64,000 nucleotides of DNA from Phallus indusiatus (taxonomy: Eukaryota; Basidiomycota; Agaricomycetes; Phallales; Phallaceae), in assembly GCA_027605045.1 (NCBI GenBank), contig JAQFWX010000039.1, positions 124,001 to 188,000 of the forward strand, written 5' to 3'. The translations under genes and the position numbers were made by a program. Below, in pieces: positions 5,279 through 50,675 of this stretch. Position 1 is the first letter of the stretch. Each line of letters starts with the position of its first letter. The notes under the pieces were generated by a model. It saw only the letters and a program-made list of their open reading frames with translations, was not told the DNA's origin and did not search any database.

Positions 5279-5297
5279 TCTCTCAAACACTGCTGGC

Positions 5298-8200
5298 GCG
5301 ATTATTTCAACTGACGGTATCAAAATATCTAGTAAGTTTAGAATTTCTCATTGAAATCTCGGTTTATATCATTATGGATTCCTCTGAATAAAGATGTTTG
5401 TTTGCTTAATTCTCCACCAAAAAACAGTCCGGAGTTCAAAATAATGATCAAGTGCGGCATTAAAAACGATAAGGCTCCAAAAAGTGCAGATGGGAAAGGG
5501 AAATGTGATAACGATCGCGTAATCTGGAACGAACCTTTTGTCTTGTATGTTCAAGATTATAATCTTCTCAGATATTTGAGTTCACGTCGCCATTCAGTCC
5601 CGGCGGTATTACGGACGGGACTCTCTTGACTTTCACTGTGCGGAAGAAACAATTTCTGAAGGATATTACAATTAGCGCCTGGGAACGCCAGGCCATTGAC
5701 CTATTTGAGATGCAAAGAAATTTTGGTTAGTTATGCTACTAAAAACATCGTCATTATTCGAGTATTAATGATATTATTGCAGGTTCATGCAAATTAGGCG
5801 TTGCTGGAGAATCTCAATTAACATTCAACATTGAAAAAATGTCTGGACTTGATGTTGTGTCGGGAGTGGTAAAACAAGCATCAACAGGGCTGAAAAGCTT
5901 ACCGAATCTAGAGGCCTCAGCCCAGACTGCCAATTTTATCGGTTCTGCGGCGCAAGTCTACAATGATAATGAAAAGACTTGGATATCGTTTCTCGACACA
6001 TTTCAGGTTTTTATGAAAGTGATGGATAATGTTTTTCAGGTAGTTCTGTTACTCAGCATACTTTTATCCTTTCTGAAACTTTCTTAAGATAAATATATAT
6101 GCACAAGCAGCATGGAGTGTTCTATCGGTGATTCCAAAGGTAACATTTTTTTTTCTCCTGGGTATGACGGACTATATAAATTAATTTGGCAAGATTATTG
6201 TCGCCAAAAAAAACCGTGATGAGAAAGTCAAACAGTTGGGTGAAAAATTGAAGGATGTCTACGAATACGTTATGCACGCGGAGTGGTTTACCAAGCTTGC
6301 TGCGACCCAGTCCACGATCCAGTCCACATATCAGGCCGCGATACTTTCCACGCTGGTTCAACAAACCATTGAATGCGCATATTTTATCAGAGAGTACACT
6401 GCGGAAAGTACAGGTTGTTTCTTTCCCAAGATCGTGTAATTGTGTAGTGGTTTGACATCCAAGTTCTAGTCAAAAACATAGTTAAGGCAATTGGTGGGAG
6501 CGTGGATGCCAAGATTCAAGCTTTCAACGACAAACTCGACCACCTTAAGATGGTGATGACGGATTCGGTCAATCTTGACACGGGCATCATAACCCTTCGC
6601 GTATCTGGGGCAATCGCTGAATTAAGTACGTGAATCATCAAATTTATGTTATTATCGATTCGTGACCTTGTTCTACAAGATGAGCACATATTGCTCGGAG
6701 AAATACCCTACGATTCTGGCGCCGGTTATTTCCCAAATAAAGAATGTTTACCCGGAACTCGACAAAACCTAATCAATGAGATATACAAGTGGGCCAATAA
6801 CGACTCACTGACACAGATACTTGTTCTTACCGGACAAGCGGGAATAGGAAAGACCGCAATAGCACATACCATCGCTAAAATGTTCAAAGATCAGAATCGG
6901 CTCGGGTCCATGTTCTGTTTCAGCCAAGGCTATTCCAACCGGCGCAACCGTCTCTTTAGCACTGTATCCCGCGACCTCGCTGACGGGGACACCATGTGGC
7001 GAAAAGAATTGGTGAATGTTATTTACAACAACTCTGCTGTTCGGAAGAAAGAGGATGTCAGAACACAATTTGATGAACTTATTATCAAGCCTTCCCAACA
7101 CATAGCAACTATTGGACCCGTGGTTGTCGTTGTTGATGCGTTGGATGAAAGTGGGGACCGTGAAGAGCGTAGGGAAATCCTGGAAATTCTTCTGAATGAA
7201 TGGACCAAGCTTCCGAAGAATTATCGTATAATTATTACAACTCGCCCTGAACAGGACATTGAGGACCAATGCCAAAAATCCGATATTTCATTTGGGCGGA
7301 TGAGCAATATTAACACGTGGGAAACGCGTCGCGATATCGAAGCTTATGTCTCCAGTCGTCTTGCCTCAATATCATCAGTACTAGACAGGATAGACAAAGA
7401 TTGGCGCAGTACACTAGCCGATCATGCCCAAGGTCTTTTCCAATGGGCTCAGACTGCTTGCAGGCTCATTGACACTGCCGTCACACGTCCCCAGCTCATA
7501 CGGGAAAACTGGGAAACTTGTGTGTCAAGCTCTTCCTCATCATTATACAATTTATACCATCAGATTATTTCAAATCAACCAGAATCTCGGCATCCTAGTT
7601 TCAAAGAACAGTTTAAGGCGATCGTGGGTGCTATTGTAATTGCGCAAGAGCCCCTCTCAATTCACGCACTACAAAATATCTTTGAGAATATTGAAGATAT
7701 CATGTCAATACTCGCCCCGTTTGGATCATTCTTTTCTGGTGTTCATGACCCGTCAGGATCTACTCCGGTACGACCTCTCCACACATCGTTATTCGATTTT
7801 TTCATGGCCGAAACAATCTCCGAGAAAAACCAAGAAATGAGCAAAAAAATAAATGATTACTACATCGACACGTCAAATCAAAGCCGGATGACGCTCGGTT
7901 GTCTCAAAGTGATGAATCGGATGCTTTGCTTCAATATCTGTCACCTTGAAACATCACACTTGCCCAATAACGAGGTGCCCAATCTCAATTCACGTGTCAA
8001 GAAAGCCATTCCGTCGCATCTGTCATATTCATGTCGGTTTTGGGCCTTTCATCTCCAGTCGTCAGCTCGTAGCAAGGAACTCATTCATGAAATCCGGAGA
8101 TTGATGGATGACAATCTGTTGTATTATTTTGAGGCCCTCAGTTTGTTAAGTGTGGTTGAGCATAGCTACATAGCAATGCGAGAAATAGCAAACTGGTGTA

Positions 8201-10731
8201 AAGTGGGTGATCTTTTACCTGTTGCATATTAGACGGCTGAATTAGGTGGTAGGTTGTAGACAATGACCTAGCTGAGGATGCGATAGATGCATGGGAGTTT
8301 GCATATGATTTTAGATATACTATGTCGGAGAGCACACCGCACATCTATCTCTCGGCGCTTCCCTTCGCCCCTCGCGATACATTCATATCCAGAAAGTATC
8401 TCGAGGGGTATCCCGGGCTGTTCACGTTCGATGTTGGTCAGCCCGTCCGCTCTGCACGCAAACCCGGATTCAGGCAAAAAGATGCCTTCGTCCATGAGGA
8501 TTTCAATGCATTTGCCTTTTCTCCAAAAAGCAGTTATTACGCAGCTGCAACTTATTCTGAACTCTTTGTATGGAACTACATAACAGGGGAGAAGGAGGCT
8601 ACTCAACCAATTACAATTCGCCCGACCGCCATCGTATTTTCCGCTGATGGAGAATCAGTTTACTGTTGTTCTATGGAAGGTGATATCCTGATATGGAATA
8701 TGGTGACAAAAGAGATGATGATAGAGAAATACGGGGAGATAATCGGTGCCGAGTGTGATCATTGCACTATATCTTCGGACGGGCGCTTTATAATCTGTTG
8801 CACAGAAAAGGAAGTACTCCTATTCGATCGAAAAAGTCGTCAGATTGTTAAACGCTTCGAATTGAGACACTATTCCTTCGCAATCTCTCCCAACGGGGAA
8901 TGGGTTGCCCTGGCCCTTTTTGAAGAATTTAAAGAAAAGGTGCACATTTGGAATACTCGGAAACAAACGCAACATATCATACCCTGCAATGATCAGTGGG
9001 GCTCGTCACTCGCACTCACTGACAGCTACATTGCTTTCAAATCAGACAACAAAACAATAGACATCTGGGATCTACGGACAAACAATAGAGTCACTGAAAT
9101 TCAGCAGGGGACGAGAGTCACAAGCTTCTGTCTTTCTCTCGATGTTCGATATATCCTTTCTACCTCCGACCAAGAATACTACTCAATTTGGAGTGTGGCT
9201 ACGGGAGAATTAATTAGCCAATCTCATGAAGACAAATTGCAAAGCTGCTTAGGGTTCTCACACGATTCCGGATCAGTTGCATTGGCAACATATCGTCATA
9301 CAATTCGCGTTCGACAATGGGATGAGATCATAGAACCGAGTCCCTTGAAAGAGATTGATAAGGTGGACGAAGCTTGGTTACGGGGTGCATATCTCATTCT
9401 TCGATATAGGACGGTTTCCCGTGAACATTACCTCCGGATATCGGATATTACGACACCGAATACGATTATCTTTGAAGCCGAGATTGGTTGGAACGTCAGT
9501 GTTTCTCCTGGAGAAGAAAATGTGCACGTTGCATACAGCAGTAGTCGCGGACTTTGTCTCTGGAATGACAAAGAAGGCGAGATTGTTGTAGACGGATCAG
9601 TCCATTCAATCACCGCACTCATGTATTTGGACAACTATCTCATTTCTGGACACGAAACAATCATCACAATATGGGATAGTTGTACCCACAAATTGATTCG
9701 TGGTCCAATCGACTTACCATATAAACTGGAATCCCTTCTCCCCGTGCGAGGTACCTTCTTTGCTGTCATTCGTTGGAATGAAGTGCAAGTTTGGGATTGT
9801 GAATCGGACGACAGAGTAGGGATATTTACATTGGACTTACCCTCCATTCTGGATTCCCTGACTGCTGTTTCTGCCAACGAGAAACATCTCATATGCATGT
9901 TAAGGAAACGCGTCGATATATTCGATTTGACGGGTGTGAAAGTTAACTCATTTCCGTTAACAGGACCAGCTTGGCCCTTCAATAAGCAACGATCCTTCAA
10001 CGGAAAGTATCTGACATGGACTGGGGGCAAGAAAAGGTTAAAACTATTCGATGTTGACACCGAAACATTACGAACCGTGACCGACCCGTCGTTCAATCGA
10101 TCTATTTGCAGCTCAGCGTTCACCAATGATTCAAAGTGTATTATAACAGTGTCTAGGGACGTTGATGATTGGCGGGACCTCAGATTTGATATCTGGGACA
10201 TAGAATCCAAAAACACGATCATCAAGTCAATTTGGTATGGGGCAGAATACGGCCTAACTATGAGCAAAAGACATATAGTCTCAACTCGATTACGCAATCA
10301 ATGTTCTGTGTGGGACTTGGATGCGTATGAGACAATGTCTACTTTGTATGGCGCTCCTCCACTCACCACCGATAATTCCAACATCGAGGGGTGAGTTTAG
10401 TATCACTTACATTCGATATGATTCACTGAGAGAAGCACTCAGAGAATCGGTATCTAACAAGATGAAGACATTGGATTACGCACTCGTGGCCTGGAAAAGA
10501 GCGTCACTCTCCTCTTTCACTAAAATGAATGATTCATTCTCCCTTCTCCACGGCGACGGATGGTGTTTAGGTCCGGAGGATGAGTTGTTGTTTTGGGTTC
10601 CACCAGAGATGCGCAAGCAGTTCTGGGTTCCATGCACGACGCATATGCCAATTCAAAACATTGTAAAACTAAATTTCACAAATTTCGTACATGGTCTGGA
10701 TTGGACAAAATGTAGACTCGGAAACAACTAA
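5298..10731 (+). CDS. NLR copy A: C2-like / helical / NACHT / WD40 protein, start codon lost or replaced
   Basis: Intracellular STAND-type receptor. Exons: 5298-5331, 5394-5544, 5598-5725, 5783-6039, 6089-6139, 6194-6413, 6464-6625, 6680-8206, 8260-10390, 10443-10731. Introns are 49-62 nt and phases match paralogues B and D throughout, leaving an open frame of 1649 codons. The codon matching their ATG is GCG (5298-5300) and no in-frame ATG precedes it before a stop, so the start is missing or supplied by leader exons at 4785-5194. Order: C2-like domain (about 1-115), helical region (about 115-335), NACHT with Walker A GQAGIGKT (about 386) and Walker B VVVVVDALDES, 'RIIITTRPEQD' sensor, 'VRPLHTSLFDFF' winged-helix motif, degenerate WD40 units, then a tail with 'ELLFWVPPEMR' and 'FVHGLDWTKC'. 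Closest to copy B. It could be a pseudogene or a chimera; the long intact frame argues against old decay. Confidence 0.8.
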
Positions 10732-11084
10732 AGTCCAAACAAAACTATTGAATATAACTTGTTCTCATTGGAATTTACTTTTACACATCTGTGCCAAACA
10801 CTTCAACAACTTTAAAATTGGAGATGCATATTAATCCGGCTTCTAATTTGCGCTCAGGATATGAAAGAACACGCATATACACATACAATCTCAAAATTGA
10901 GCCAAAAAATGGGACTATGAGAGTCAAATAATATCCGTCAGAATGCCTGCCATGGCGTTCACCAGATGAACGCACATGCACCGCTTGTTTTTTTTTAAAT
11001 CGTGTATATGAATATCTCCTTGTTTCAAATGTAAGCTTTAGATATAAATAAAATAATATGTGCAATCGTCTCACCTTACAGGGA
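10732..11084. other. 3' flank of NLR copy A
   Basis: About 350 bp after the stop codon. It aligns with the 3' flanks of copies B (24383-24740) and C (34997-35260), for example the 'tcaaaattgagccaaaaa' text near 10892. The duplicated units therefore include the 3' region. No gene seen. Confidence 0.6.
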
Positions 11085-12110
11085 GTAAAACGTATAGCTA
11101 GGAGGTGGATTCGACTTACCTACCATCGCTCAGCACTCAGGAAAGAAAAGAAAGAGGTCCGGGTAGTCATGAGGGGCTATTTTTGTCTTGTTCCGGGCGG
11201 CCGTTCGGAGCATATGCAGCTTGCCTTCTTTAGATCGGACGGTAAAGGAGAAACGATAAAATCCCGAGACGATCGTGGAGAACACCAAGCGTATCGTATG
11301 GGAGAGCCGCTATCTCTTTTCCACTTTGATGCTCATCGGCCACTTCACGGTGCCACCTTATACACCAGACTGCTCTGAAAACAGCGATCTGTAGACAAAG
11401 CACCATGTATCCAGGACTGAGCGTGAAGCGCGAACCGCTAAGCAACAGGAGAGTATCGGATAGCTGTAGAAGACGCGGTGGTGCATATAATTCAATTTCA
11501 TCATTGACAAGCAAGGACCATGGACCAGGCCGCCATAGGTTGCGCCGGGGCTGGGTCTTAGAGAGAGACTTACTAGACGACCGCCACGTTGATCAGTTCA
11601 GGGTGACGTCTGACAATGCTGGCTAAAAGCTGACATATGCCAACATTAACACCGATAATGAGAACGAATGTGCTGTACACCTCAGAGGAGCCGGTCTTGA
11701 AAGACGATGGCAGCAAGTATAGTTGAGAGATCCCTCTCTCTCACTAGGGTATGGCGTGGCACACTGCGCTCGTTACTATGAACAGGGAACTGGGTACTTA
11801 CCTGGGTTTATCACGCTCTCGACAACGTGAATCTGGTAGCTAAAGATGTGATCCCTCCGGTCGTTGCAAAGACCTTTCATTGTAAGTTTCGTCAACTAGA
11901 CCGAACCGTGGTAACCGACAATGACCCCACAGTTATTGAACATTGATTTATCATCTCTCGTCACTCAATCTCTCCGTCACTGAAGGACGATATCGCGCTA
12001 GCTACACGGAGTAGTCCCGATGCGGAGGAGTTTGAGGATAGAGAAGCTGAGTCGCTTCTTGCTCAAGGAGTGTATTTGTTGAAGCCGGGGGGGTATGCTG
12101 AAGGAATGGG
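11085..12110. repeat. Degenerate spacer repeat, family B, copy 2
   Basis: Closely similar to 24740-25870 and, more loosely, to 13690-14640. Shared landmarks are 'cttgttccgggcggccgttc' near 11188, 'ccatgtatccagga' near 11403 and 'tacacggagtagtcccgatg' near 12003. The minus strand shows a GTAAGT-like donor at the left edge and short hydrophobic open stretches, suggesting a decayed minus-strand gene I cannot name. Confidence 0.7.
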
Positions 12111-12309
12111 ACCCATTTAAACAAGTGGAATCAAGACCATAATCCGCGACGGGAGCGAGACGGGAAGATGTGAAGAAAGTTACTGCAAGACAATCGCGAA
12201 TTTTAAATAAATAGGTTCAAGTAAGAAATTCCTCGTGGCCTGTAAGCATAATTTAGTAACTAAGCACGGCCCGGAATTCCCGGTACCAACTCTGCCCTAT
12301 TATCCCTGT

Positions 12310-12970
12310 AATTATGAATGCCCGAGCGGACGTTCAAACGTTCAATAGTTGTGGGATGAGCTGATGATAAGCGAAGAAGAACGCGGGGTGTTTGCGCCAT
12401 TTGCAGATGGTGAATTTTATCTTTCTTCCATGCCGAACATGTCTTCGTTTCAAAAATACTCTTTCTCTATAGATCACTTCAATGAAGAGCTTTCTGCTTT
12501 GCATGAACTAGAGGTTGAAAAACTGAAGCAGGAACGAAGAATCAAAAAACCTGTTCTTTCCGCGATAAAAAGGTATTCCGAGATCTGCAATGAGGAGTGG
12601 AACTCGCCGTTCGTGTCTATTTGCAATTATACTATTCACATTTTGTTCATGAAATATAACATACTAGGCCTCTGCTGTAGACCAGTCTCGACTGCTAGGT
12701 CGCGGACCGCGTGATCCAGGATGATCACTTCGAGATGATGCGCAAGAAGGTTGCTAAAGAGAAACCTTGCGTAAGTTGCAAAATAATCATGAAAACATCA
12801 CTTACATTGATCCATTTTCTTTTATAGTTGAAGCAAGAGCTGTTGACAGCGGTTATGACTTGGGAGAGCGAACATGAAAGGCCTTTCCTTATGCATGGAT
12901 AAAGCATGTTAGAAGCTCTCACGGAGACGGATGGTAGACGAAGCAGAGAATGAGAATCGCAAGGTATGTG
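12310..12970 (+). pseudogene. Ase1/PRC1/MAP65 fragment, copy 1
   Basis: Decayed 3' part of a microtubule-bundling Ase1/PRC1/MAP65 gene. The frame around 12346 reads LWDELMISEEERGVFAPF, followed by 'LHELEVEKLKQERRIKKP' and 'IKRYSEICNEEW', all typical of this family's C-terminal spectrin-like half. A second piece (12725-12775, intron, then 12830-12960) gives 'MMRKKVAKEKP' and 'ELLTAVMTWESEHERPFLM' before a stop (TAA at 12899-12901). The pieces are in different frames with stops between them. The same order appears in 39220-39840, so this is a duplicated, dead fragment. Confidence 0.75.
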
Positions 12971-13560
12971 GTATGTTTGCTCTTTTCAAAAGACTGTTCA
13001 TGACCGTATGGTTAGAGAGCTCGCTCTGGATTAGCACCCCCACGCAGAACTACACCCCAACCCACCGGGTCGGTGACTGGCCATCGTACGACACCCGGGT
13101 CATTGCAATTGTCCAACAGCGAACCACGACCATGTTGAGACAACACAAGCGCGTTTGGTGTACAATCCCAGTATGGAAACACTTCTACCTTTTACCAAAT
13201 TGCCAATACCAGCAACGTCGTCGTATGTAATTAAACCGGGAAAGAAGGCGAATGCTCTATCGTCAAATCTGTCGACACCTGTTTTCTAATCCAAAATATG
13301 GACATGGACCTGGGCATGGGTAGCGTATAGAATATGCGTCAACCTTCAGCTCTGTTAGCATTGATAACACGTCTCCGTTCAATAAGCGAGCGGGAGGAAG
13401 AGTGCAGGAGAGTTTCAGACCCCACCCTAGTGCTAGCAGTTCTGTTAGACAAAGCACGTCGTCAACGTCGCATTGTCATTCTTGTGGTTGCATACTGGAA
13501 AAAAATTGGGAGACTTCGGACTGAAAGAAGTTGAATGTCGAACAAGAGCGATTATCTCTC
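12971..13560. repeat. Duplicated Ase1 3' flank
   Basis: This continues the similarity with 39841-40480 beyond the recognisable Ase1 exons. Shared text includes 'accgtatggttagagagctc' near 13005 and 'ccagcaacgtcgtcgtatg' near 13210. It probably represents the C-terminal exon or 3' region of the decayed Ase1 gene. No usable open frame remains. Confidence 0.6.
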
Positions 13561-13689
13561 ATAATTAAGCTCATGCAACGCTTGTATTTGTCTGCGATTA
13601 TGATCATCTTGTTGCACTGAACATAAATACAATATCTGTGGTTTTTTATATAAGGCCAAGGTCCAAGATTGAGGACAGTATCCTTTACA

Positions 13690-14640
13690 AGCAATGGAAC
13701 TAACTAGGAGGCGAAGGCAAAGGTTCGACTTACGATAGCTTAGGGCAAGGAAGAGGACCGGGTGATTGTGGGGTACCTTGGGCTATCTTGTTCCGGCGAC
13801 AGTTCCGAACAGAGCTTGTCTTCCGAAAAAGCCTACGACTACATCGCTTTGAGTCGTTCTTCGCCAGCCCATGATTATACAAGATACACGTCAACGAATT
13901 AAATTGGATGTAGATAAGAGAGCGATAAAAGCCTGAGACGGTCAGGGAGAACACAAATGGGAGCACCGCTCTCTCCTTTCCATTCTTAGACTCGCGCCTT
14001 ATACACCGACCTAATAATAGTGATCTCACTATGTATCCAAAACTGAGAATAAGGCGCAAGCTTCTGGCAGCAGCAGTAACGAAGCTGACCACGGCAAAGT
14101 ATCGAGTGGCTGTAAAAAGCACGGTGCTGCATACGACACAACCTCATCATTGACAAACAAGGACCGTAGGCCATAAGTAGGTTGTGCGCCGGGATGGGTG
14201 TCATGACCATCATGCTTGTTCAACTTTAGACGACCGCCGCGTTGATCAGTTCAGAACAACCTCTGGCAAAGCTAGCCTAAAGGCTGACGTGTGCCAACAT
14301 TGTCATCTGCCTTATTGGCGTCGATGATGAGAACGAGTGCGCTGTGAGCTTCAAAGGTGCGGTTCTTGAAAGACAACAGTCCTGGCAGCATGCATAGATA
14401 AGAGTGTCCCCACTGGAATATGGCGTGGTACGAAGTTGCGTTTGGCACACTTTCAGCAATGTTGACCTCTGCTGAGAAAGTAAGCCCTGAAATCGTTGCA
14501 CAGATCATCGCCAGCTTCCTAAGTTTCGTCAGCTAGGCTGAACCTGAACCGTGGTGACCGAGACCATTACCGTCCTCCACTCAATTTCCCGTTACCAAAA
14601 GAATGATACTGCGCCAACTACATGGGGTGTTCCAGTCCCA
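13690..14640. repeat. Degenerate spacer repeat, family B, copy 3
   Basis: A more diverged relative of the blocks at 11085 and 24740. Shared landmarks are 'gagtcgttcttcgccagcc' near 13853, the 'catcattgacaa' text near 14145 and 'gaaccgtggtgaccgagacc' near 14540. Its position next to copy 2 of the same family means the A-B spacer carries two such units, so it was itself internally duplicated. Confidence 0.65.
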
Positions 14641-14790
14641 CTTGGAGGGTCGACGGACGCGCTGTGCTAAACAGAACTGGTAGGACGATACCGCGAAATA
14701 AACTTGTGAACCGATGCCAAAGACCGTTATTTCTATTTCCTGTGTGATGACTAGACCCGCGGCAGCATATGGCGAGAAATGATTTAAAGA
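14640..14790 (-). pseudogene. F-box gene N-terminal relic
   Basis: The minus strand reads SLASVHKFISR, then shifts frame. The DNA aligns closely with the F-box part of the gene at 41883-43433; compare 'ggtaggacgataccgcg' near 14670 with 'ggtaaggcgatactacgg' near 43275, both followed by 'accgatgccaaagac'. Frameshift and stop codons show it is dead. The rest of the F-box gene is not recognisable nearby. Confidence 0.65.
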
Positions 14791-14879
14791 GCCAGTTCCA
14801 GAATCCAGTCTAATTGCGGGCATATGCTATTGGACTGCATACATGACGGTTCACAGTGCGCATGCGAATGTCGAAAAGG

Positions 14880-16420
14880 TATATGGGTGTAAGAGCAAGC
14901 AATGAGGTCGAGTTCAAACATGTTGATGAAGTGGGTGCGGGTCGAAAAACGATCACATATGTAATGGTCGTGCTGCACGGGAAGTGGATGTAACGTGTAA
15001 GACAAGATAAGGGATCCTGAGCAAAGAGCTGACGAAATGGCACATGATAGCAGAGTACATATCGGCGGAGAACAGGGATGGATCGGGAAGAACAAAGTGG
15101 AGAAAGGGAGTAACCAAGCCTAGTTTTCAGGTCGGAGCAAAAGACCTGGGAGACTCTATCCAAACCTAGAAAGATCAAACCGGATAAGGAAGCCAGAGAA
15201 TTGGTCTGCTCAAACTTCCTTTATGGAAACTTGGCGGGCAACGACCGTAGAAGTACCGAAAGCAGAGATGGGAATCCAACTGAGCAAACGTTCGGCGTTT
15301 GCCAGGCAGTGGAATGAATGTCGTTCCGTGGGTGGTCACTTTACTACTGATGACAAAGAAAGTTGAAGCAGCCAAAGAGATGGCTAATCTGAGTGCCCGA
15401 TACTGAAATGCGGAAAGTGCATATTCGTAGGAATAATCCATGGCTTGGTCAACATCTAACACCAGATGCTAAGCTCATGGTCCGAGATCAAAAGGCATTT
15501 ACCTCTCAAGTTTTCCGCCTAACATCCGACGCACCAAGTAACCAAGCCCAGCGTTCAGATCGAGACAAGCTTTGGGAGCCGACCTCAATCCAAACCTAAG
15601 ACTAACCCGGATTAAGCCTGAGAATAGCGCATAATTGTGCCAATACACAGCCACCCAAAGCTTCTTTACGAAAGCTTAGTACGTCCGGACTTAGTTCTCT
15701 GTCCAGCAACCTCCCATCCGATGCATCAATCTTTTGTTCTCATCTCACGCCATCATGATCTCCTAACAAGACCGACATCACCATACGAGTAGCCGCAAAT
15801 ATTCGGCATCCGGTTCCTTTGAGATCTGCCCCACGAAACGGGACGAGAATCCGTCCTTTTGTAAGGCAAGTTCCGTCTACAAGAAGATGGTTGAGCGCTC
15901 TACAGCTCGAGAGAAGGTAGCCTCATATCCGTATCCAAACGACAACTCAGCACTGTCCTCGCTATCCCACCCATCGTCCGAAATCCACATCAATCTCGCC
16001 ACCTCCTCAATTGAAGCTTTGATGTGAAGTGGGACCATGTCGAATAGCCCTTTTCTTCGCCCTGTAACGTCTTGCCAGATATCTCTCATAAGAATCAAAA
16101 GTCTCATACGAGCCAACTTGACGTGGCCGATCGATGTTTTTATGAGTACATATTCAAATGATCCTATCAAAGTCCATGTCTCAATTTCAATAAGAAAACC
16201 AACAGCAATTACACCACCTTGTCTTGGACGAACCTCGGGTTCTGCGGAGCCCACTCACAGTGACGAATGCACCTAGCCCCCTGTACCGTTATACGGTACG
16301 TTGCAATCCGGATAAGACAAGAAAGAATAATATCTCAGCGAAACTGTGCGAAAGTCTTGGTTGAGCAAAGAAGTGCATGGGAAGAGAAGATAGGACGGAA
16401 AGAATGCCGCATGGGCCTGA
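14880..16420. repeat. Degenerate spacer repeat, family A, copy 2
   Basis: The longest copy of spacer family A. It aligns with 430-1640 and 26290-27665; landmarks are the 'gagcaaagag' text near 15014 and the 'gtcttggacgaacctcgggt' text near 16218. It ends against the target-site duplication of the inverted-repeat element at 16440. Confidence 0.7.
15877..16254 (-). CDS. Hypothetical 125-codon open frame in spacer family A
   Basis: Unrecognised. It is the longest open minus-strand frame in the family A blocks. The matching stretches at 1240-1560 and 27150-27560 are broken by stops and frameshifts, so this is most likely the least damaged relic of a former gene. It contains 'EPEVRPRQGGVIAVGFLIEI' near the N-terminus and an acidic stretch (DDGWDSEDSAE) near the C-terminus. 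The start Met may not be the original one, since similarity extends upstream. Confidence 0.3.
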   Translation of the reverse strand: MGSAEPEVRPRQGGVIAVGFLIEIETWTLIGSFEYVLIKTSIGHVKLARMRLLILMRDIWQDVTGRRKGLFDMVPLHIKASIEEVARLMWISDDGWDSEDSAELSFGYGYEATFSRAVERSTIFL

Positions 16421-16439
16421 GGCTTACCTAGGTTCAAAT

Positions 16440-17082
16440 AATGATTTCCTGGCCTTGGCTTGGTCTGAAGTCAGCGGCTTTGGCCTGGCTTGCTCTGTCT
16501 TTGGCCTCTGAAAATCTCGAGCCAGGCCGGAGTAACCTGGCTCTGGCTTGGCCTGGCCGGCTTTGGCTTTCACATATCAGAAATCCGCGCTGTATAGAAA
16601 TTCTAGCACGGTGACTGTAATTACTTATGTTTTGCAATACTAATATTCTCCTCCTTCTTCATTCAACTATCTGAGCCGCTATTATCAGATTGAATCGCGC
16701 GAGTCTTCTTTGCTGGCACAACCGGTGCTGGTTTGGCCCAGCCGACCAATAGGCTTTGAGGTGCCCAGCATTGTTGGGAGCGGCTAATTTTGCAGTGGGA
16801 ATACGAGTGCGGGTACTTCCTACACGAGCAGCAGGTATATCTTTGGTTTTTGGAGACATAGATGGTGATAGTTAAGTGTTCGAAAAGTTGTTTAAAATTT
16901 TTTTTTCCTATTACTATGTGAGCTTGTAGGTGAAGATCTTGCCGTCTAGGCAACAGCCGAGATGCCGTGGCCCGACGGCTTGGCCCTGGCCTGACCAACC
17001 CCAAAGCCAGGCCAGTGAGCATGGCCTGAGGCGGCTTTAGCTTGGCTTGGCCCTGGCCTGAGCCAGAGCCAGGCAAATCATT
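16440..17082. mobile_element. Non-autonomous TIR DNA transposon (643 bp)
   Basis: The left end (16440-16453) reads AATGATTTCCTGGC. The right end (17068-17082) is its inverse, AATGATTTGCCTGGC, with one extra base. The element is flanked by a perfect 10-bp direct repeat AGGTTCAAAT at 16430-16439 and 17083-17092, the expected target-site duplication. Just inside both ends are clustered CCTGGC/GGCCTGG motifs in both orientations, typical of subterminal binding repeats. The interior is too short for a transposase. A minus-strand stretch at 16659-16859 (MSPKTKDIPAARV...) may be a transposase N-terminal relic. The 10-bp duplication is longer than the usual 8 bp of hAT elements, so the superfamily is left open. 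Confidence 0.8.
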
Positions 17083-17289
17083 AGGTTCAAATGAGTTTGA
17101 GTTCTCAGACCATTCGCTACAATCAATGATAGCATTTTCAGCTAAAAGGGCCCGAAGAAGAGTATGCACTATTTGTGTATCATGCGTTGACGCTGGTGCA
17201 TGGGAACACAACGCGCCAGATAGTGGCAGATACAAATGCGTTCGTGCTGACCAACGCCGCGCTTTGCGCTGGTTCATTTAAGTAGGCTT

Positions 17290-18955
17290 GCTGGCCGTAA
17301 TGCGATTCAAGAAGAGAAAGAGACGAAAGCCACGATATTGGTGTCAATGCATAAAAAGAATCGGGTCTGTTTCTTAAGCTTGTGACATCCCTCTTATGGG
17401 GCGAAATTGAGAAAGCATATGCCATATGACTTTGGCCAAGGATACCGATCATCGACATCGTGTATCGTTCTGAAGCCCATGACAAGCTGCCGCCAGAGTC
17501 TTGACCAAATATACGTTCTGGTTTGAAATTGGGCAATAGTGCGCAGTCCCAGGTGGTATCTGCGGCTAGGAAGGGATTTGCTTGAGTGGATGAAACACTG
17601 AGCTATAGAGTTGAGACGATAGCGAGATAAAACATACGAGTCACAAGCTCGGTCTCTACCAGCCCAGTTAGAATAATGAGGCCGTATACTTGGGTGATAG
17701 ACGAATCAATTCCCAGACGAGAGCAGGACTTGCGTCGTGCCAAACGGGTCCGATGATCTTTTTCGAGTAAACTCAACGACCATCCATGAATAAGACATCG
17801 ACAAAAGATTGGTAGATGGTAGCCTGATGTTAATATCCATCGCGAACCTGAACGAATGTCCTCTGGAATACTACGTATCTCATTCATTGTCAATCCGTAG
17901 TTTGCGTATACGTATGTTCTGTTGCACAACGACAGAGAAACATCCTTAACAAACAGAACATAAACGTGTATCTATGAAACGAACAAGTAGTAAAAATTAG
18001 ACAAACCAATCATGTACCGCTAGCCTTGAATGCATTCCTAGCTCGATGCGCCCGCATCAACGAAGAAGCGCATGAGATGCTCTCTTCAAGCATATCTGGC
18101 AATGAAATCCCAATATTAATAAACTATGTGATAGTTTCGAGGGTCATCTTTGATCAAAAGTAACGAGAAATGCGTTGGCAAAGTTCAGACTTGAACTGAA
18201 GCCTGAAGGGTAACCGGATTCACAGGGACCATCGTGAGTGGGGCCACCTTCGACGCTCGGTCCTTTGGCAATGAGTTATGTCGCTCTGGTGTATTTCGCG
18301 GTATTAGTTTGGTACCTGACGCATGAGATTGTCAAAGAGTCCTCGCCCGAGTTAACTATTCTCTCGTGACGCGTGACGTATGTAGTGACTTGCCGAAATA
18401 GGTTCAATAACGGCCGGAACCTTCTCGAATCAGCACCTGCGAACCCCAATTCATTACGGAGCTAGCTAGCTGAGAACATTCGTCATGTATATCTCTTTGT
18501 GTTGATTTCGGACTTCAGATAAGTTTTGAACAATTTAGTCCTTTTATGGGGTTAGTAATAGTCTTCATGATTCCTTACGACCTGGTGAAACATTCATATC
18601 AATTTATCGCTTTAGGACTTAATTTTTTTTTCGTACCGCGTACCTTCCGTGCTCAAATTTGAGTGCGAAGGATTGTATTGAACTCCTAAGAGGGTGCGGA
18701 CTCTGAATTCGAAGATTCTAGAGGTTGGTCTCCGACCTGCGTATAGAATTTTTCTCACATTGGCTTTAACCAATGGAGAATGTAGGTGGGAAAGTGAAAA
18801 GGAAGCAAGGAAACAACGAGGCAACGAGTATGAATTGAGAATCCAAGTTCAGATCCACCTTAAGGCGCTCTCCAAGTCTGCCTCAACCCTAGTCTTGGTC
18901 AGTACTTACCCATTGGTCATCCCGCAACGTAACGAGTCTCTAACGGTACTCCATC
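17290..18955. repeat. Upstream block of NLR copy B (spacer family C)
   Basis: This 1.7-kb 5' region is related to 28010-29602 and 44030-45147, so it belongs to the duplicated unit. It includes a short conserved patch ('gtgcggactctgaat') about 260-270 bp before the start codon in B and C and, as 'gtgcggactttgaat', about 620 bp before it in D. Short minus-strand open frames (17180-17536, 17603-17929) look like relics and are not called as genes. The promoter of copy B must lie in its right end. Confidence 0.6.
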
Positions 18956-24382: not shown

Positions 24383-24739
24383 AGTCCAAACGGAACTATT
24401 GAATATAACTTGTTCACATTGGAATTTACTTTTACACATCTGTGCCGAACACTTCAACAACTTTGAAATTGGAGAAGCATATTATTCCGGCTTCTAATTT
24501 GTGCTCAGTATATGAAAGCGCATACATATACAATCCAATCTCAGAATTGAGTCAAAAAATTGGGACATTGAGAGTCGCATAATATCCGTCAAAATGCCTG
24601 GCGTTCACCGGATGAAAGCACATCATGATGCACCGCTTGTTTTTTTTATTGTGTATATGAATATCTCCTTGTTTCAATTTAGACATAAATACAATAATAT
24701 GTGCAATTGTCTTCTATATAAATGCTGTGTACCTTATAG
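24383..24739. other. 3' flank of NLR copy B
   Basis: This region resembles the 3' flanks of copies A and C, including the 'aatttacttttacacatctg' text about 45 bp after the stop, shared almost unchanged with A. No gene seen. Confidence 0.55.
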
Positions 24740-37581: not shown

Positions 37582-37824
37582 ACTGGGGGGTATGAAAAAA
37601 AAAAGTTGCTAGCGCCTAGTACTACGTGACACGGTGTTACGCGCATCAAGAGCAGATATCGATCTTCATCGCATGTATTTACAAGCAGTAGCGATTCTGT
37701 TTGCGTTGTACAGTACACATTGTTGACACATTGCCGTTGTATTAGTTGTGTGGAACTGTGAATACGCTTAAGCCCGATTACGTGACGTCACTATCCAGTG
37801 TCACAGCGCTGCCCCGCATCACCA

Positions 37825-43433: not shown

Positions 43434-44029
43434 CAAAGAAACTTGAGCGCGTCATGTCACAATCGCGTCGCGTTACGTGTGTTAGACGCCTGGTATAGCA
43501 AGTTGAACGCAAGAATTTCTCCCAGTTATCTCAGCTAATACTGATTTACCATCTGTCCGTTTATGATCAAATCGTGCTCAACTCGAACACTCGTGTCTGT
43601 GGTGCTATCTGCCGTGTCGCATCACTGCTTTTGCATGTGCAGTCTCATTTTATAGTTGTGAACTGATATGCTCAGCTTTCTCTGCGGTCGTCTTTAAACA
43701 AACGCGTCAACGCATGATATACGGTCCGTCAACATGTGCGTGCGTCTTCAAGCTTCAAGGCCCCGGTCTCACCTATATAGATGTACCCATCGGTAATTTA
43801 CTAGATCCTTGGTAAAATTGAGGAGAATGTCGTGTCTTCCATCAGATAGAATTCATTTGAAGCTATCTTCACACCTAACCAACTTTGATTCCGCAGTTAC
43901 GACATCTATCCACTTCAATCAGGCTCAGCTTTTGAGTAGGTCGAAAGTACATGTTATAGCGACTCAGATAAATAGGATTGTTGATCGGAAAGCGTGTATT
44001 TAGGATGCCTACAAGATATAAGCGTCGAT
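43434..44029. other. Spacer upstream of second F-box gene
   Basis: About 600 bp holding the 5' region of the minus-strand F-box gene. No further gene is recognised; the short plus-strand frame at 43809-44003 has no support. Confidence 0.4.
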
Positions 44030-45147
44030 GCTAAAAGAGGGACCAGAGCCGTTCACTGAACCTACGACATCCCGCCTACGGCGGAAGCAGAAGCATAAGA
44101 CCGTCTTAGCCCCAAGAATATAGGCCATTCTCATGCTCATGAATAGTCACTGCCAGGAAAAATGTCGATCGGGTTTACGTTTTATGGTGTAGAAACCATC
44201 TGAGCAAGGAAGGAATTGGCTTTGATGAAAAGAAGACGTTGAAACCAAATAGAAGCTATTACAGACTCCGTTAGGATACCGAGTCGTTTTGTTGATAGAC
44301 TGGTCTCAGAACAAGCGGGATTGGATAGCACCAGACGGGTCTTACGGAGAGAAAACACATGTCGCCATGTTATATGCTAATTTCTGGCTTCAGCTCAGTT
44401 AGGTTTCATTATGTGTAGCCAGTGGTCTTCAGGCCTCCGGTTTCAATTTCTCAGTTCTAGCACGATTGGCACGATCACATGATAGTATCGGAAGTTGGAG
44501 CTGTAGAGCTCCGAGCTCACGGTGTGTGCGGACTTTGAATCCGGAGGTTCTAGGCGGCGCCGCGGTGTTGGCATTGACTCGGGTAGTAAGTTCTGTATTC
44601 AACGGCCAACAGAGATGTGAAAATCACCGCGAAAATGCAAGAGACAACGAGGCAGCGAGTGAGAGCTGAGAATCAGGTCTGGCATAAGGCGCTCTTGAGA
44701 GCAACTTTTCACAAGTCTTGATCGTGCTCCTCAGTATACTCCGTGCTCGCCCCGTAACTTGCCCCTTATCAATGATATTTTGTCATGGCTTGTGTGTGTG
44801 TGTGTTATTCCAATAAGTCCCTGAGGGCATAGCCCTATGTATCGGGACTTTTACTCTGTCTAACTACAACATGATTTATAATCGACAACGCTTTTGCATT
44901 ATATATAGCATAATTCCATAGAGCCCATAGATTTTTAAAGCGCTGGTACTTCTTTGTCTGCCTGTTTCCCAGCCAATCAAACCGCTCCCTCTTGACTTCT
45001 ATTCCGGACCAAACTGTTGGGTCCTTAGTCTATGTGATCGCCAATCACCGTCCTCGACTTATACGAGCTCCTTAACGCCTCAGTGCGTTCCACGTTTTGC
45101 ACTTGCCGAGCGGCTCTCCATGAAGTAATTTTGTAGGCCGGATTGTC
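44030..45147. repeat. Upstream block of NLR copy D (spacer family C)
   Basis: Related to 17290-18955 and 28010-29602 through the 'gacatcccgcctacggcgga' text near 44068 and 'gtgcggactttgaatccg' near 44526. It holds the 5' region of copy D. A short TG dinucleotide run lies near 44792-44803. No gene. Confidence 0.6.
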
Positions 45148-48100
45148 ATGGCTTTTTCGACGGAAGGCATAAAGATATCTGGTAACTTTTAGAATTAGTT
45201 TTGATTTATCTCATCCCTGATCGCTTGGATAAAGATGTTCGTTTGATCAATAGTACTCCACCGTCATGGAAAGATGATAAGCTCGAAATTGAAATAAAGT
45301 ATGGCAAGAAAACGACAGCCAATGCACAAAGCGCAATTGGGAAAAGTGATCAGCACGAGAATCGCATGATCTGGGACACGCCCTTCATTTTGTATGTTAG
45401 AAATTATGATCTTCAATTTCTAGCTTACATCCAAGATTTAGTGCGGGTGATATTACTGACGACACTCTTCTGATATTTATCGTCCGAAGAAAGCGAGTTT
45501 TCAAGACAATTATATTCGGCCCGTGCGAACGTCGGGCCATTGACCTACTCGAACAACAAGGTGATCCTGTTTGCTGAAACGCTGTCGTTAGTCTTGTACT
45601 TATATAATTTCAGGTTTATGCAAGTTGGACGGCGTCGGAGAATGTCAATTAACCTTCAACATCGAAAAAGTATCTGAACATGAGGTCGTTTTGGGATTGA
45701 TAGAAAAAGCATCAGCCGGATTAGGCAGTTTACCAGTTCTGGAAGCCCCAGGCGAGGTTGCTAATGTTGTCAATTCTGTGGCACAAGCCTACAATGATGA
45801 TGAGAAGACCTGGGTATCATTTCTTGACACATTCCAGGCGTTTATGCAAGTTATGAATGGTGTTTCCGAGGTAGTCTAGTCAGCAAGCATGCCTTCATTC
45901 CGAGCCTTCCTAAAGCCTCTTCTAGATAAACATATATGTGCAGGTAGCGTGGAGTGTTCTATCCATTATTCCGAAGGTAAAAGCACACTACTTTTCCCTC
46001 TCTTAAACATATATAAATTGATCTTGCAAGACAATTATTGCGAAGAAAAATCGCGATGACAAAATCAAACAGTTATGCGAAAAACTAAAGGACATTTACG
46101 AGTACATTACGGACGCGGAACGGCTTTGCGATCTCAATGCGACTCAATCTACAGCTAGATCTACCACCCGCTGGTCTAAAATGCTTTACACGCTGGTTCA
46201 GCAAACCGTTGAATGCGCATATTTTCTCAGTGCGTACGGTACGGAAAGTACAGGTTGTGTCTTTCTCGAGATCATGTGATTCTGAAATTGAGTCTGATTT
46301 TGAAGCTCCAGCTAAAAACATAGTCAAGGCAATTGGTGGGAGCGTGGATGTCAAGATTCAAGCCTTCAATGACAAACTCGACCACCTTACCAAGGTGATG
46401 ACGGATTCGGTCGATCTTGAAACTGGCATTGTAACACTTCGTGTGTCCGAGAAAATCAGCGAATCAAGTACGTCAATCATTAAGCTCATGAGTTCTTGTC
46501 GATAATACGATTCCTTCATAAGATGAGTTAGCATTGCTGGGAGAAATGCCCTACGACTCTGATGCTGGATTTCTCCCTAAGAAGCAATGTTTACCAGGGA
46601 CACGTCAGACGTTGATCAATGAAATATTAAAATGGATCAACGACGATAGCTTGCCACATATTCTGGTCTTAAGTGGACAAGCGGGAATAGGAAAATCCGC
46701 AGTGGCACATACCATCGCTGGAACATTTCAAAAACAGACCCGACTCGGATCCATGTTTTGTTTCAACAGAAGTTTCCCGGACCGGCGCAATTGTCTTTTC
46801 AGCACCATATCCCGTGACCTCGCCGACAGCGACACCTTCTGGCGAAAAGAACTAGTGAAGGTTATCGACAAGTCTGCGGTTCGGAAGAAGAAGGATGCCG
46901 AAACGCAGTTTGACGAGCTCATCCTTAAACCTTCGAAAAACGTGGCAACTATTGGATCTGTTGTGGCCGTCGTGGACGCATTGGATGAAAGTGGGGAGCG
47001 CAACGAACGCAGAGAGATTCTAAAATTACTCTTGGACAGATGGAGTGAGCTTCCCAAGAACTACCGTATCATTGTTACTACACGTCCAGAACAAGACATT
47101 GAGCTTCAATGCCAGAATTGCAGTGTTCAATGTATACGGATGGGTGATATTCAAGATGCAGAGGAAACATATTCCGATATCCAAGCTTATGTCTCGGTTT
47201 GTCTCGCCCCAATATCCTCGATCTTGGACACGATAAGCTGGAATTGGCCTAGTGTACTAGCAGAACGCGCCGAGGGTCTTTTCCAGTGGGCTCAGACTGT
47301 CTGCCAATTCATCGATCCCACCGTGAGGCGTCCACGGATAGTAAAGAAGAAGAAGTGGAAAGCTTGTATCTCAAACTCTTCTTCGTCCTTATATGGACTA
47401 TATCGTCAAATCATCTCAAACCAGTCGGAAGCCGAGGACATTGAATTTGTCGAAGACTTCAAAACGATTGTAGGCGTGATTATAACTGCGCGGGAACCCT
47501 TGTCAATAGATGCGCTACAAAACATCTTTGATGATATTGAAGATATCGAGTCAATACTCACCCCCTTCGGTTCTTTTTTTATTGGCGTTCATGACCTGTC
47601 GACCCCTGTGCGGCCTGTCCATACCTCTTTATTCGATTTTTTCAGCTCTCAAAAGATCATTGGAGAAGATAATGAGTACTACATCGACACATCAAACCAA
47701 AGCCGGATGGCACTCGGGTGTCTCAAGGTGATGGATCAGATGCTCTGTTTCAATATTTGTCAACTGGAGACATCTCACAAACGCAATGAAGATATGCCCG
47801 ATTTTCGGTCACGCGTCAAGAAAGCCATTCCATTGCATCTTTCGTATTCTTGTCGGTTCTGGACTGCTCATCTTCAATCGTCAACTCACAGCGAGGAACT
47901 CATCTGCGAAGTCCGGAAATTGATGGATGACAATCTGTTACATTATTTTGAGGCACTCAGTTTGATAAATGCAATTGTGAGTGGTTGCACGGCAATGCAA
48001 GAAATAGTGTATTGGTGTCAAGTCAGTGATCCTTTTCCTGTTGCATATTTAATGGCTGAATCAAGCGGTAGGATGGAGATAATGACCTGGCTGAGGATGC

Positions 48101-50675
48101 GATGGATGCGGCGAAGTTTGGATATGATTTTGGAGACATGATGGTAGAGAGCACGCCACATCTATATCTTTCCGCACTTCCATTTGCCCCTCATGATTCA
48201 TTTGTATCCAGAAGGTATCTCGAGAGGTATCCTGGATTGTTCACGTTCGATGTTGGTCAACCTGTCGGCTCAGCTTCGCGCAAAATTGGATTCACGCAAG
48301 CAGATGCCTTTGATATACAGATTGCCTTTTCTCCAAAAGGCAGATATGTGGCAACTAACCGGCGTTACAGTGAAATCATTGTATGGGACTACGTAACAGG
48401 AGCGAAGGTGTTTGTTTGTTTTGTAGATCACTTGGCGGAGCGGTCTGTACAGCGAAGGGTTTTCGACATCCTACTTTCCCAGCAAAGTGTTTGCAACATC
48501 GTATTTTCCCCTGATGGCGAATTAATTTATTGTTGTTATGTGAACGGCGATATCCTGATATGGAGTATGGGAACCAAAGAAAAAAGGACAGAGAATTACA
48601 AGGAGACAATTGGTGCTGAGTGTCTTTATTGTGCCATATCTTCGGACGGGTGCTTTATAGCCTGGCTGACGGCAAACTCGGAAATACTCCTATTTGATCG
48701 AGAAAGTCGTCAGATTGTCAAACACTTCAAATACTATCGTTATCGTGATTTCTTCGCGTTTTCTCCCAACGGAGACTGGTTTGCATTTTATAGTGGCACT
48801 GAAAAGGTGTACATTTGGGATACTAGAAACCAAATGCAACATGTCATCCCCTACTATACTCTGTGGAAAGTGATACGGCTCACTAACAGCTACGTTGCTT
48901 TTCAAAAAGACGACACCTCAATAGAAATAAGGGATGTACGAACAAACATTAAAGTTACTGAAATCCAACATGAATCATCTATCACAAGCTTCTGCCTTTC
49001 CCCTGACGATCGATATATCCTTGTTGGCTCGGCCAGAATGTACTTGATTCGGAGCGTGTCTACTGGCGAATTGATCACTCGAACCTATGATGACGAATAC
49101 GTTCGGTGTCTAGGGTTTTCACATGATTCCAAATCAATCGCGTCGCTCCGTTGGGACTACACTGATGACCGACCCGGGTCAAGCACACTCCACGTTCAAC
49201 AATGGGATGAATCCATAGAACCGAATCATCCGCATGGTAATGAAATCAAGAGAGTGTCCGAAATTTGGCTGCGGGGTCCGTATCTGATTATTCGGTATGT
49301 AACGGTATTTCTCGATAAATATCATCTGCAAATCTCGGAAATTGCGACAACGAACACGATTATATTTGACGTCGAACTTGGGAACTACTACGGACCCGTC
49401 GATGTTCCTCCTGATGAGGAAAACGTGCGCCTGGCATACGGCACCAGCCGCGGACTCTGTCTCTGGAACGACAAAGAAGGCGAGATCATTGTAGACGAAT
49501 CGGTCCGTTCAATCACCACGCCCGTGTGTTTGGACAGCTATCTTATTGCTGGAGACGAAAAAACCATTAATATTTGGGATATTTGTACCCGAAAATTGAT
49601 TTGTGGTCCAATCGACTTACCATATGAACTAAAATTCCTTTTCCCCGTGCGAGGTACTTGTTTCGCTGTCGTTTATGATGACGATAAAGCGGAAGTTCGG
49701 GACTGCGAATCTGATGGCAAGACGGTAGGAGACATGTTTACATTCGAAACGAAGACTCGCAATTCCCCGATTGCTGTTTCCGCCAACGGGCAACATGTCA
49801 TATGCACGTCAGGAGACAGTCTCAATATATTGGACTCCACAGGTGCAAGACTGAGCTCGATTCCATTCTCATACTGTCATCCTAAACGGCGGCTATCCCT
49901 CAATGGGAAATATATTGCATGGACGGATAACCACGGAATAAAACTCTTTGACGTGGACACCAAAACATTCCTCACTGGCCCATTGTTGAATCAACCGGTC
50001 CAAAAGTTGTGGTTCGCCAACGATTCAACCCGAATCATAATGGTACATAATGCACATTCGACCGATGGATGTTCAGACAATGAAGATTGGAATGCTTCCG
50101 GTGCTAGTACAGGGATGATTCGGCCCGGGTTGATAGACATCTGGGACATACAATCCACAAACACGATAATCAGGACAATTCGGTATCCGCTAAACTCGTA
50201 TGGGATAAATACCCTAGCTCTGAGTGATAGACATCTGGCGGAACTTGTTGATGTCCCTTGGAGATGTTCTGTCCGGGACTTAAGTACATATGAGGCGATG
50301 TCTACTCTGTACGACTCTCTTCCACTTCCCGCCAATGGTTCCGAGATTGAAAGGTGAGTTCAAGTTATCAAATTATCATCCCCTATGTTTCATTCAAGAG
50401 AGACTCCCAGAACGCTGGTGTCCGACAAGATGGAGATATTGAATTACGCATTAACGGCCTGGAAGAAAGCTTCACTTCCTGCTTTCCCTAAAATGAAAGA
50501 CGGATGGGTTTTGGGTCTTCAGGGTGAGCTTTTGTTTTGGGTTCCAGAGAGAAAAAGAAGGGGATTTTGGTATCCATGCACGATGCATATACCGCTTCAA
50601 GACATTACAAGACTTGATTTCAACGATTTCGTACATGGTCCTTGTTGGACGAAATGTAGATCCAAGTACGACTAG
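45148..50675 (+). CDS. NLR copy D: C2-like / helical / NACHT / WD40 protein, most diverged
   Basis: Predicted 1681 aa. Exons: 45148-45181, 45235-45391, 45442-45560, 45614-45870, 45926-45976, 46031-46253, 46306-46467, 46523-48025, 48079-50353, 50411-50675; phases close. C2-like region to about 115; helical region to about 334 ('VAWSVLSIIPK', 'QQTVECAYFLSAY'); NACHT with Walker A GQAGIGKS at 386-393, Walker B VVAVVDALDES, 'RIIVTTRPEQD', 'EPLSIDALQNIF' and 'VRPVHTSLFDFF'; linker 'STPHLYLSALPFAPHDSF'; WD40 region; tail 'ELLFWVPERKR...FVHGPCWTKC'. Compared with A-C, the NACHT exon is 24 nt shorter, and the WD40 region has an extra stretch of about 20 residues between the first two units (near 48410-48480) plus extra acidic loops (near 50050-50120). 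The acceptor at 45441 was chosen because it gives the same junction residue and alignment as in A-C. Confidence 0.86.

What the first reader, a model, noticed from the sequence alone, without database searches (positions are those of the whole stretch)
5298..50675. Four-member tandem cluster of C2-like / NACHT / double-WD40 NLRs
Seen: four same-strand genes with identical exon order, intron phases and domain order, each about 1640-1680 codons, and spacers duplicated with them. Known: fungal NACHT-WD40 proteins such as HET-E act in non-self recognition and are generally arranged as effector, NACHT, repeats. Inference: the C2-like module is the output domain and may act at membranes. A tandem array of this exact type would be a local birth-and-death receptor repertoire.
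Basis: partly seen in the sequence, partly recalled or inferred. Interest (0 to 1): 0.8.

Follow-up and report, generated by a model that had tools for sequence, protein, structure and literature searches.

The report
Tandem fungal NLR receptor gene array
A mushroom-type fungus carries a long row of near-copies of an intracellular immune-type receptor gene; the receptor type is already known, but comparing what look like two versions of the region in the same genome shows the row gaining, losing and splicing together receptors.

Summary
The four genes are real: same-strand paralogues, each C2-like / helical / NACHT / two WD40 propellers, with matching intron positions.

The architecture is in print (C2 listed for basidiomycete NLR N-termini, 2014; "C2 Goodbye-like" double domains, 2022), so this is a new member of a known kind.

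New here is evidence for how the array changes. What looks like the second haplotype holds one gene where the window holds copies 1 and 2; the 13.6-kb difference equals one repeat unit. Copy 2 is a chimera: copy-3-like C2/helical half, mostly copy-1-like WD40 half. Copy 4's alleles differ mainly in the first propeller; copy 3's do not. Birth and death is supported. That C2 itself is the output domain is not shown; I favour C2 as membrane anchor and the helical bundle as executioner.

The parts
5298..10731 (+). Copy 1: C2-like / helical / NACHT / double WD40 NLR, 10 exons; exon 1 (to 5331) has no ATG (GCG at 5298), true start unresolved
18956..24382 (+). Copy 2: 10 exons (18956-18989, 19059-19212, 19267-19388, 19442-19692, 19746-19796, 19856-20051, 20104-20265, 20316-21842, 21896-24035, 24088-24382), 1643 aa, open from ATG to stop; chimera of copy-3-like N half and mostly copy-1-like C half
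29603..34996 (+). Copy 3: NLR with ATG at 29603; last intron possibly lost (frame open 32558-34996)
45148..50675 (+). Copy 4: most divergent copy; ATG at 45148 lies inside the right target-site duplication of a SINE-like insertion
19213..19266 (+).
   Evidence: absent from the four homologues printed
18956..19480 (+). C2-like domain of copy 2 (about residues 1-122; end approximate), spread over exons 1-4
   Evidence: Pfam PF00168 24.4 bits, residues 36-103; model of relative P0002
20316..21842 (+). NACHT and post-NACHT exon of copy 2 (Walker A at 20468, Walker B at 20756); same exon in copies 1, 3 and 4 at 6680-8206, 30985-32511, 46523-48025
21896..24035 (+). Double WD40 propeller exon of copy 2
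   Evidence: Pfam; AlphaFold2 mean pLDDT 77.7; Apaf-1 among the best PDB matches
44780..45154 (.). SINE-like insertion with 12-bp target-site duplication (44780-44791 and 45143-45154), absent from C162; leaves a 15-codon upstream ORF from the displaced ATG at 44785
   Evidence: the name SINE-like is my inference
48143..49342 (+). First propeller of copy 4: identity to the C162 allele is 90-95% per 300-base window, 95-100% in the rest of the gene
3383..24400 (+). Stretch that holds copies 1 and 2 here and a single gene (C162:602950-595520) on the other contig

Best explanation
These are fungal STAND receptors of the C2 / helical / NACHT / WD40 kind. Most likely the double propeller binds a cue and holds the protein off, the NACHT ATPase then opens and oligomerises, and the N-terminal pair acts at a membrane: the C2-like domain docks on acidic lipids, probably without calcium, and the helical bundle behind it carries out cell death or defence. 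The genes lie in a large tandem array that changes by unequal crossing-over, by exchange inside genes that sets a C2/helical module of one lineage on the receptor module of another, and by local divergence of the first propeller. Shown: domain make-up, tandem array, chimera. Shown if C162 is rightly assembled and is the other haplotype: copy-number difference and propeller-centred allelic divergence in copy 4. Inferred: cue sensing, oligomerisation, lipid binding, cell death.
For: Domains: Pfam, models, Apaf-1 and Dark as the first six Foldseek matches to relative P0002, Apaf-1 at ranks 2, 3, 9 and 10 for the propeller exon. Array: at least 14 NACHT places on C139 and 36 on C162. Haplotypes: C162 follows C139 in order, mostly at 94-98.5% and lower (87-92%) across several of the genes, with one gene for copies 1+2; left flank 93-99% like copy 1's in the eight windows 602750-601000, right flank 96-100% like copy 2's in the eleven windows 595500-593000; size difference 13,587 bases against a repeat spacing of about 13,640. 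Chimera: dS copy1-copy2 1.49 in C2, 1.10 helical, 0.64 NACHT, 0.12-0.24 over post-NACHT and propellers; 895 informative sites, copy-1-like share 0.23 left and 0.80 right of 21035, 0 of 2000 shuffles; trees place copy 2 with copy 3 for C2+helical and with copy 1 for WD40. Selection: in the six window-copy pairs dN/dS is 0.19-0.36 for C2 and 0.42-0.68 for propeller 1. Copy 4 alleles: 33/241 synonymous changes in propeller 1 against 19.5/843 elsewhere, Fisher 1.2e-10.
Against: No Pfam C2 hit in copy 4 at E<=1; copies 1 and 3 not scanned. No Goodbye, HeLo or MLKL family called in the helical region, only sub-threshold DUF7708, and much of that region of P0002 is modelled with pLDDT 35-60. The Apaf-1 and Dark matches to P0002 have low whole-chain TM-scores (0.17-0.29). 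Copy 3's two alleles differ at C2 by 5 nonsynonymous and 0 synonymous changes, against the purifying picture, and they show no propeller peak (2/238 against 20/821, p=0.19). Propeller 1 dN/dS is 0.41-0.94 in the 12 pairs computed, never over 1; values over 1 appear only on few changes (C-tail in 2 pairs, NACHT of the copy 4 alleles). A stretch of copy 2 at 20615-20972 fits neither copy 1 nor copy 3, so the chimera is not a single switch. Copy 1's start is unresolved and copy 4 may be impaired, so not all four need work. No expression data.
Confidence: 0.6

Rival explanations
1. The C2-like domain itself is the output, and the helices are only a linker.
For: C2 has dN/dS 0.19-0.36 in all six window-copy pairs and recurs in relatives: Pfam C2 above cut-off in 4 of 7 scanned. 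C2 is described as lipid binding and membrane targeting in NLRs (PMC4986451, passages).
Against: The helical part is the more conserved: of 120 listed homologues, 108 matched the helical query and 5 the C2 query at E<=10. The published view is a C2 plus Goodbye-like pair.
Confidence: 0.22
2. The one-for-two gene difference between contigs is an assembly collapse of copies 1 and 2 on C162.
For: A collapse would also give a left flank like copy 1 and a right flank like copy 2.
Against: In its propellers the C162 gene is 75-96% like copies 1 and 2 and identical to neither. Other tandem genes on both contigs are kept apart. The chimera inside copy 2 of the window does not depend on C162.
Confidence: 0.13
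3. The array is mostly decaying duplicates with little present function.
For: Copy 1 lacks an ATG, copy 4 has an insertion at its ATG, the C162 counterpart of copies 1+2 has a frameshift near 596250.
Against: Long open frames in all four copies, conserved Walker motifs, NACHT dN/dS 0.15-0.48 in the six window-copy pairs.
Confidence: 0.12
4. Copy 4's propeller peak is a conversion tract from another paralogue rather than old allelic divergence.
For: Exchange between paralogues is clear elsewhere in the array.
Against: Over the near-full stretch the best non-allelic match is 70-71% against 88% for the allele; short pieces reach 82%. Only 40 of 122 candidates were scored, and the donor could be in another individual.
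Confidence: 0.35

Closest known systems
Basidiomycete NLRs with N-terminal C2 (survey of 2014, PMC4986451; passages seen)
   Same: C2 PF00168 in front of a NOD; [quoted passage not shown]
   Different: That survey annotated about 15% of basidiomycete N-termini; I saw no haplotype comparison of a tandem array in the passages shown
Agaricomycete C2 Goodbye-like double-domain NLR N-termini (2022, PMC9815663; passages seen)
   Same: C2 followed by a helical module in front of the NOD
   Different: Pfam Goodbye was not called on the helical module here
Podospora HET-E / HNWD family (PMC2873952, seen only as search listing and abstract start; otherwise recalled)
   Same: NACHT plus WD40, multigene family, rapid change
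   Different: No HET domain hit; WD repeats are not near-identical tandem copies; diversity seen here lies in gene exchange and, in copy 4, propeller 1
Sordariales NLR clusters (PMC12258605; passages seen)
   Same: NLRs clustered within 40 kb of each other
   Different: There 272 clusters had two to five NLRs and 16 consisted of paralogous copies; here at least 14 NACHT places in one run
Apaf-1 / Dark
   Same: STAND ATPase with two WD40 propellers; first Foldseek matches, with low whole-chain TM-scores for P0002
   Different: CARD in front and NB-ARC type (recalled); here C2/helical, with NACHT above and NB-ARC (17.9 bits) below its Pfam cut-off
Clathrus columnatus Clacol_006867 (P0004)
   Same: Best named full-length relative, 35% identity over 100% of the query, C2-region match at E 2.7e-19
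   Different: Far below the 59-79% between copies, which suggests that the array expanded later; Pfam C2 not called on it

Membership tests
Fungal NLR (STAND) of NACHT-WD40 type | NACHT domain with Walker A and B | tested here: met
   Pfam NACHT over cut-off in copies 1, 2 and 3 (copy 4 not scanned); motifs in 4 of 4 copies
Fungal NLR (STAND) of NACHT-WD40 type | C-terminal WD40 repeats | tested here: met
   Pfam WD40 above cut-off in the 3 of 3 copies scanned; double propeller model of copy 2
Fungal NLR (STAND) of NACHT-WD40 type | N-terminal effector-type domain | tested here: met
   C2 in 1 of 2 copies scanned; effector activity itself not testable
C2 Goodbye-like NLR | C2 domain (PF00168) | tested here: met
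   copy 2 24.4 bits over 22; copy 4 no hit; 4 of 7 relatives above cut-off, 1 just below, 2 none
C2 Goodbye-like NLR | Goodbye-like helical domain after C2 | tested here: inconclusive
   helices in the model at 138-342 of P0002, partly of low confidence; no Pfam Goodbye or NACHT_N hit at E<=1 in 2 copies and 7 relatives
HET-E / HNWD | HET domain at the N-terminus | tested here: not met
   no HET hit in the N-termini of copies 2 and 4 at E<=1
HET-E / HNWD | near-identical tandem WD repeats | tested here: not met
   only one short two-unit array in a WD40 exon, 48450-48510
Vegetative incompatibility (het) gene | cell death on fusion of unlike strains | not testable with these tools
   needs strains and crosses
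Apaf-1-like apoptosome protein | CARD domain and NB-ARC type ATPase | tested here: not met
   no CARD hit in the N-termini of copies 2 and 4 at E<=1; NB-ARC below cut-off, NACHT above
NLR cluster (Sordariales definition) | neighbouring NLRs under 40 kb apart | tested here: met
   largest step between the 14 places on C139 is 29 kb
NLR cluster (Sordariales definition) | fewer than eight other genes in between | not tested
   genes in between were not counted

The most novel reading that the evidence does not exclude
The array is a basidiomycete allorecognition or immunity locus in which the two nuclei of one individual carry different receptor sets: propeller 1 holds old, balanced specificities, and C2/helical output modules are swapped between receptor bodies by recombination.
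Probability: 0.2. Interest if true: 0.75.

Novelty: new member of a known kind. Interest (0 to 1): 0.42.

Why it matters
Passages of two surveys say that most basidiomycete NLR N-termini are unannotated. This locus offers what look like two haplotypes of one array side by side, so receptor turnover can be dated, the joining of output and sensor modules can be tested, and propeller 1 can be tested as the specificity part.

Tried and rejected

Tried without result: a PDB profile search with the C2 regions gave nothing significant (best E 0.39, At3g55470; then 0.74-0.82, two of those three being PLC zeta). Foldseek and VIA-align on the full-length model of P0002 were filled by WD40 and STAND matches, so the C2 and helical folds were not tested alone against the PDB. 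An upstream 83-codon ORF before copy 1 (4785-5033, relatives before five other cluster genes, pN/pS 0.34-0.90) was considered as a first exon; a splice to the C2 exon could not be made consistent, so it stays open. Conversion from another paralogue for the copy 4 peak: no closer donor among the candidates scored.

Limits: genome-wide counts are lower bounds (91 of 198 and 82 of 229 candidates scored); at least one more array gene without a listed NACHT place lies near C139:115-119 kb. Only NACHT was counted; the C2 region was modelled in 11 genes and Pfam-scanned in 2. That both haplotypes are in the assembly rests on collinearity and on two Rpb1-family genes each present on two contigs (a third was not). 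Direction of the copy-number change (loss on C162 or gain on C139) is unresolved. The C162 frameshift could be a sequencing error. The region for the copy 4 test was chosen after seeing the identity profile. Of five array pairs compared along their length, copy 4 shows the local peak, copy 3 and the C139:64-70 kb pair do not, and the C139:103-112 and 86-94 kb pairs are divergent over most of the gene and may not be strict alleles. Of 11 gene models, 10 were used for dN/dS and trees; h162_602k was dropped for its frameshift. One search scanned 7 of the 9 N-termini printed. One search listed 120 of 344 homologues. Literature statements rest on search listings and on passages of three papers.
Full report
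Where it is. The window is C139:124001-188000 of an unnamed 67.2-Mb, 206-contig genome. The best named full-length relative is from Clathrus columnatus (35% over the whole query), and the organism names among the 120 listed homologues (of 344) are, to my knowledge, all basidiomycetes, so the host is very probably an agaricomycete fungus.

The observation. Four same-strand genes are there, at 5298-10731, 18956-24382, 29603-34996 and 45148-50675. Repeat search gives four-copy families with spacings of about 13.6, 10.7 and 15.5 kb. I built copy 2 by hand and aligned the others to it with a splice-aware aligner. The first template, without an intron in the second exon, forced a frameshift in copies 1, 3 and 4 at the same place; a phase-2 intron of 50-61 nt with donor GTATGT or GTACGT removes it in all three. 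The four homologues printed run through this place without the extra residues. With that correction the genes have 10 exons and 1624-1648 modelled residues, without stops. In copy 4 two further in-frame stretches were skipped as if introns; at least the first looks like an insertion, being absent from C162. Copy 3 may have lost its last intron, because its frame is open across it.

The proteins. Pfam finds C2 in copy 2 (24.4 bits, cut-off 22) but not in copy 4; copies 1 and 3 were not scanned. NACHT passes its cut-off in copies 1, 2 and 3 and WD40 in copies 2, 3 and 4, those being the ones scanned. Among seven relatives scanned, four pass for C2, one is just below and two show none. AlphaFold2 of P0002 (51% identical over 68% of copy 2, 1157 residues, mean pLDDT 79.2) gives nine strands and one helix over residues 6-134, compatible with a C2-like sandwich, then helices to 342 of partly low confidence, then the ATPase and the start of the first propeller. 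The copy 2 WD40 exon models as two propellers (mean pLDDT 77.7), and Apaf-1 is among the closest solved structures (TM up to 0.54 by query); for P0002 the first six matches are Apaf-1 and Dark, with whole-chain TM-scores of only 0.17-0.29. In the C2 loop where calcium-binding C2 domains carry aspartates (recalled), the sequences I aligned have mostly arginine, lysine or other residues; calcium-free binding of acidic lipid is my inference.

The array. NACHT searches of the whole genome score 91 of 198 and 82 of 229 candidates; together they give 132 distinct places, 14 on C139 between 41 and 256 kb and 36 on C162. On C139 nine lie on the plus strand, then five on minus. These are lower bounds, and many are likely the same gene on two haplotypes. 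In Sordariales, published clusters have two to five members and 16 of 272 consist of paralogous copies (PMC12258605, passages), so this run is large for a fungus by that yardstick.

Two haplotypes. C162:560-700 kb, reversed, follows C139 in order, mostly at 94-98.5% and at 87-92% across several of the NLR genes; two Rpb1-family genes each occur on two contigs, a third does not. C162 has one gene where the window has copies 1 and 2: its left flank is 93-99% like that of copy 1, its right flank 96-100% like that of copy 2. The length difference is 13,587 bases against a repeat spacing of about 13,640. This is what unequal crossing-over between copies 1 and 2 leaves, or what a tandem duplication on C139 would leave. 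The C162 gene has a frameshift near 596250. A 33-kb stretch next to it, present on C162 and not at this place on C139, carries two inverted sets of retroelement-like ORFs.

Exchange inside genes. Between copies 1 and 2, dS falls from 1.49 (C2) and 1.10 (helical) through 0.64 (NACHT) to 0.12 (post-NACHT), 0.13 (propeller 1), 0.24 (propeller 2) and 0.03 (tail). Of 895 informative sites, copy 2 is copy-1-like at 23% left and 80% right of about 21035; none of 2000 shuffles reaches this. It is not one clean switch: at about 20615-20972 copy 2 fits neither copy 1 nor copy 3 (76-83%), while those two are 90-98% alike. Trees agree with the main picture: copy 2 sits with copy 3 for C2+helical (support 1.00) and with copy 1 for WD40 (0.92). 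So the array joins an N-terminal module of one lineage to a receptor module of another.

Selection. For the six pairs of window copies, dN/dS is 0.19-0.36 in C2, 0.15-0.48 in NACHT and 0.42-0.68 in propeller 1. In the 12 pairs computed, propeller 1 ranges from 0.41 to 0.94 and never passes 1; values over 1 occur on few changes in the C-tail of two pairs and in NACHT of the copy 4 alleles. Against purifying selection on C2, the copy 3 alleles differ there by 5 nonsynonymous and no synonymous changes. Copy 4's alleles are 95-100% identical except over the first propeller (90-95% per 300-base window; 88% for the whole 48150-49340 stretch as scored), with 33 of 241 synonymous sites changed there against 19.5 of 843 elsewhere. 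Raised synonymous change points to old alleles or imported sequence, not to selection on residues alone. Copy 3 and the pair at C139:64-70 kb show no such peak; the pairs at C139:103-112 and 86-94 kb are divergent over most of the gene and may not be strict alleles.

Insertion at copy 4. A 351-bp element with a 12-bp target-site duplication lies at 44780-45154 and is absent from C162. The duplication contains the start codon; the old ATG at 44785 now opens a 15-codon ORF ahead of the real one at 45148. Three other near-identical copies exist in the genome. The name SINE-like is my inference from the duplication, the simple-repeat end and the copies. It may lower copy 4 expression; not tested.

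How it works. I take these as receptors that sense with the propellers, switch through NACHT, and act at a membrane with C2 and the helical bundle. Published work names C2 as a lipid-binding N-terminus of basidiomycete NLRs (PMC4986451, passages) and reports a C2 Goodbye-like pair in agaricomycetes, with Goodbye-like sharing the MLKL/HeLo four-helix core (PMC9815663, passages); the same paper says that a cell-death activity of Goodbye-like domains is not yet established. Pfam did not call Goodbye here, so that link is inconclusive. Whether the cue is a fusing strain, a bacterium, a virus or damage cannot be told from sequence.

Verdict.

Noticed in passing
36286-37608 (-) and 42162-43451 (-): Two ORFs between copies 3 and 4: the second has an F-box (PF00646 24.6 bits, cut-off 20.5), the first only a sub-threshold F-box-like match (E 0.038); DNA relatives elsewhere on C139 and C162.
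   Followed up: partly
52400-53365 (+): Sucrase/ferredoxin-like domain (PF06999, 51.4 bits) just downstream of copy 4.
   Followed up: no
4785-5033 (+): 83-codon ORF upstream of copy 1 with relatives before five other cluster genes on C139 and C162, holding a short basic stretch; status as a first exon unresolved.
   Followed up: partly
C162:635821-602950 (loci L013-L016): 33-kb stretch not at this place on C139, with retroelement-like polyprotein ORFs in two inverted sets.
   Followed up: partly
44792-45142: SINE-like element with near-identical copies on C1, C111 and C143 and others at 74-81% identity.
   Followed up: partly
48408-48482: In-frame extra stretch with a 30-bp two-unit repeat in the first propeller of copy 4, not in the C162 allele.
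   Followed up: partly
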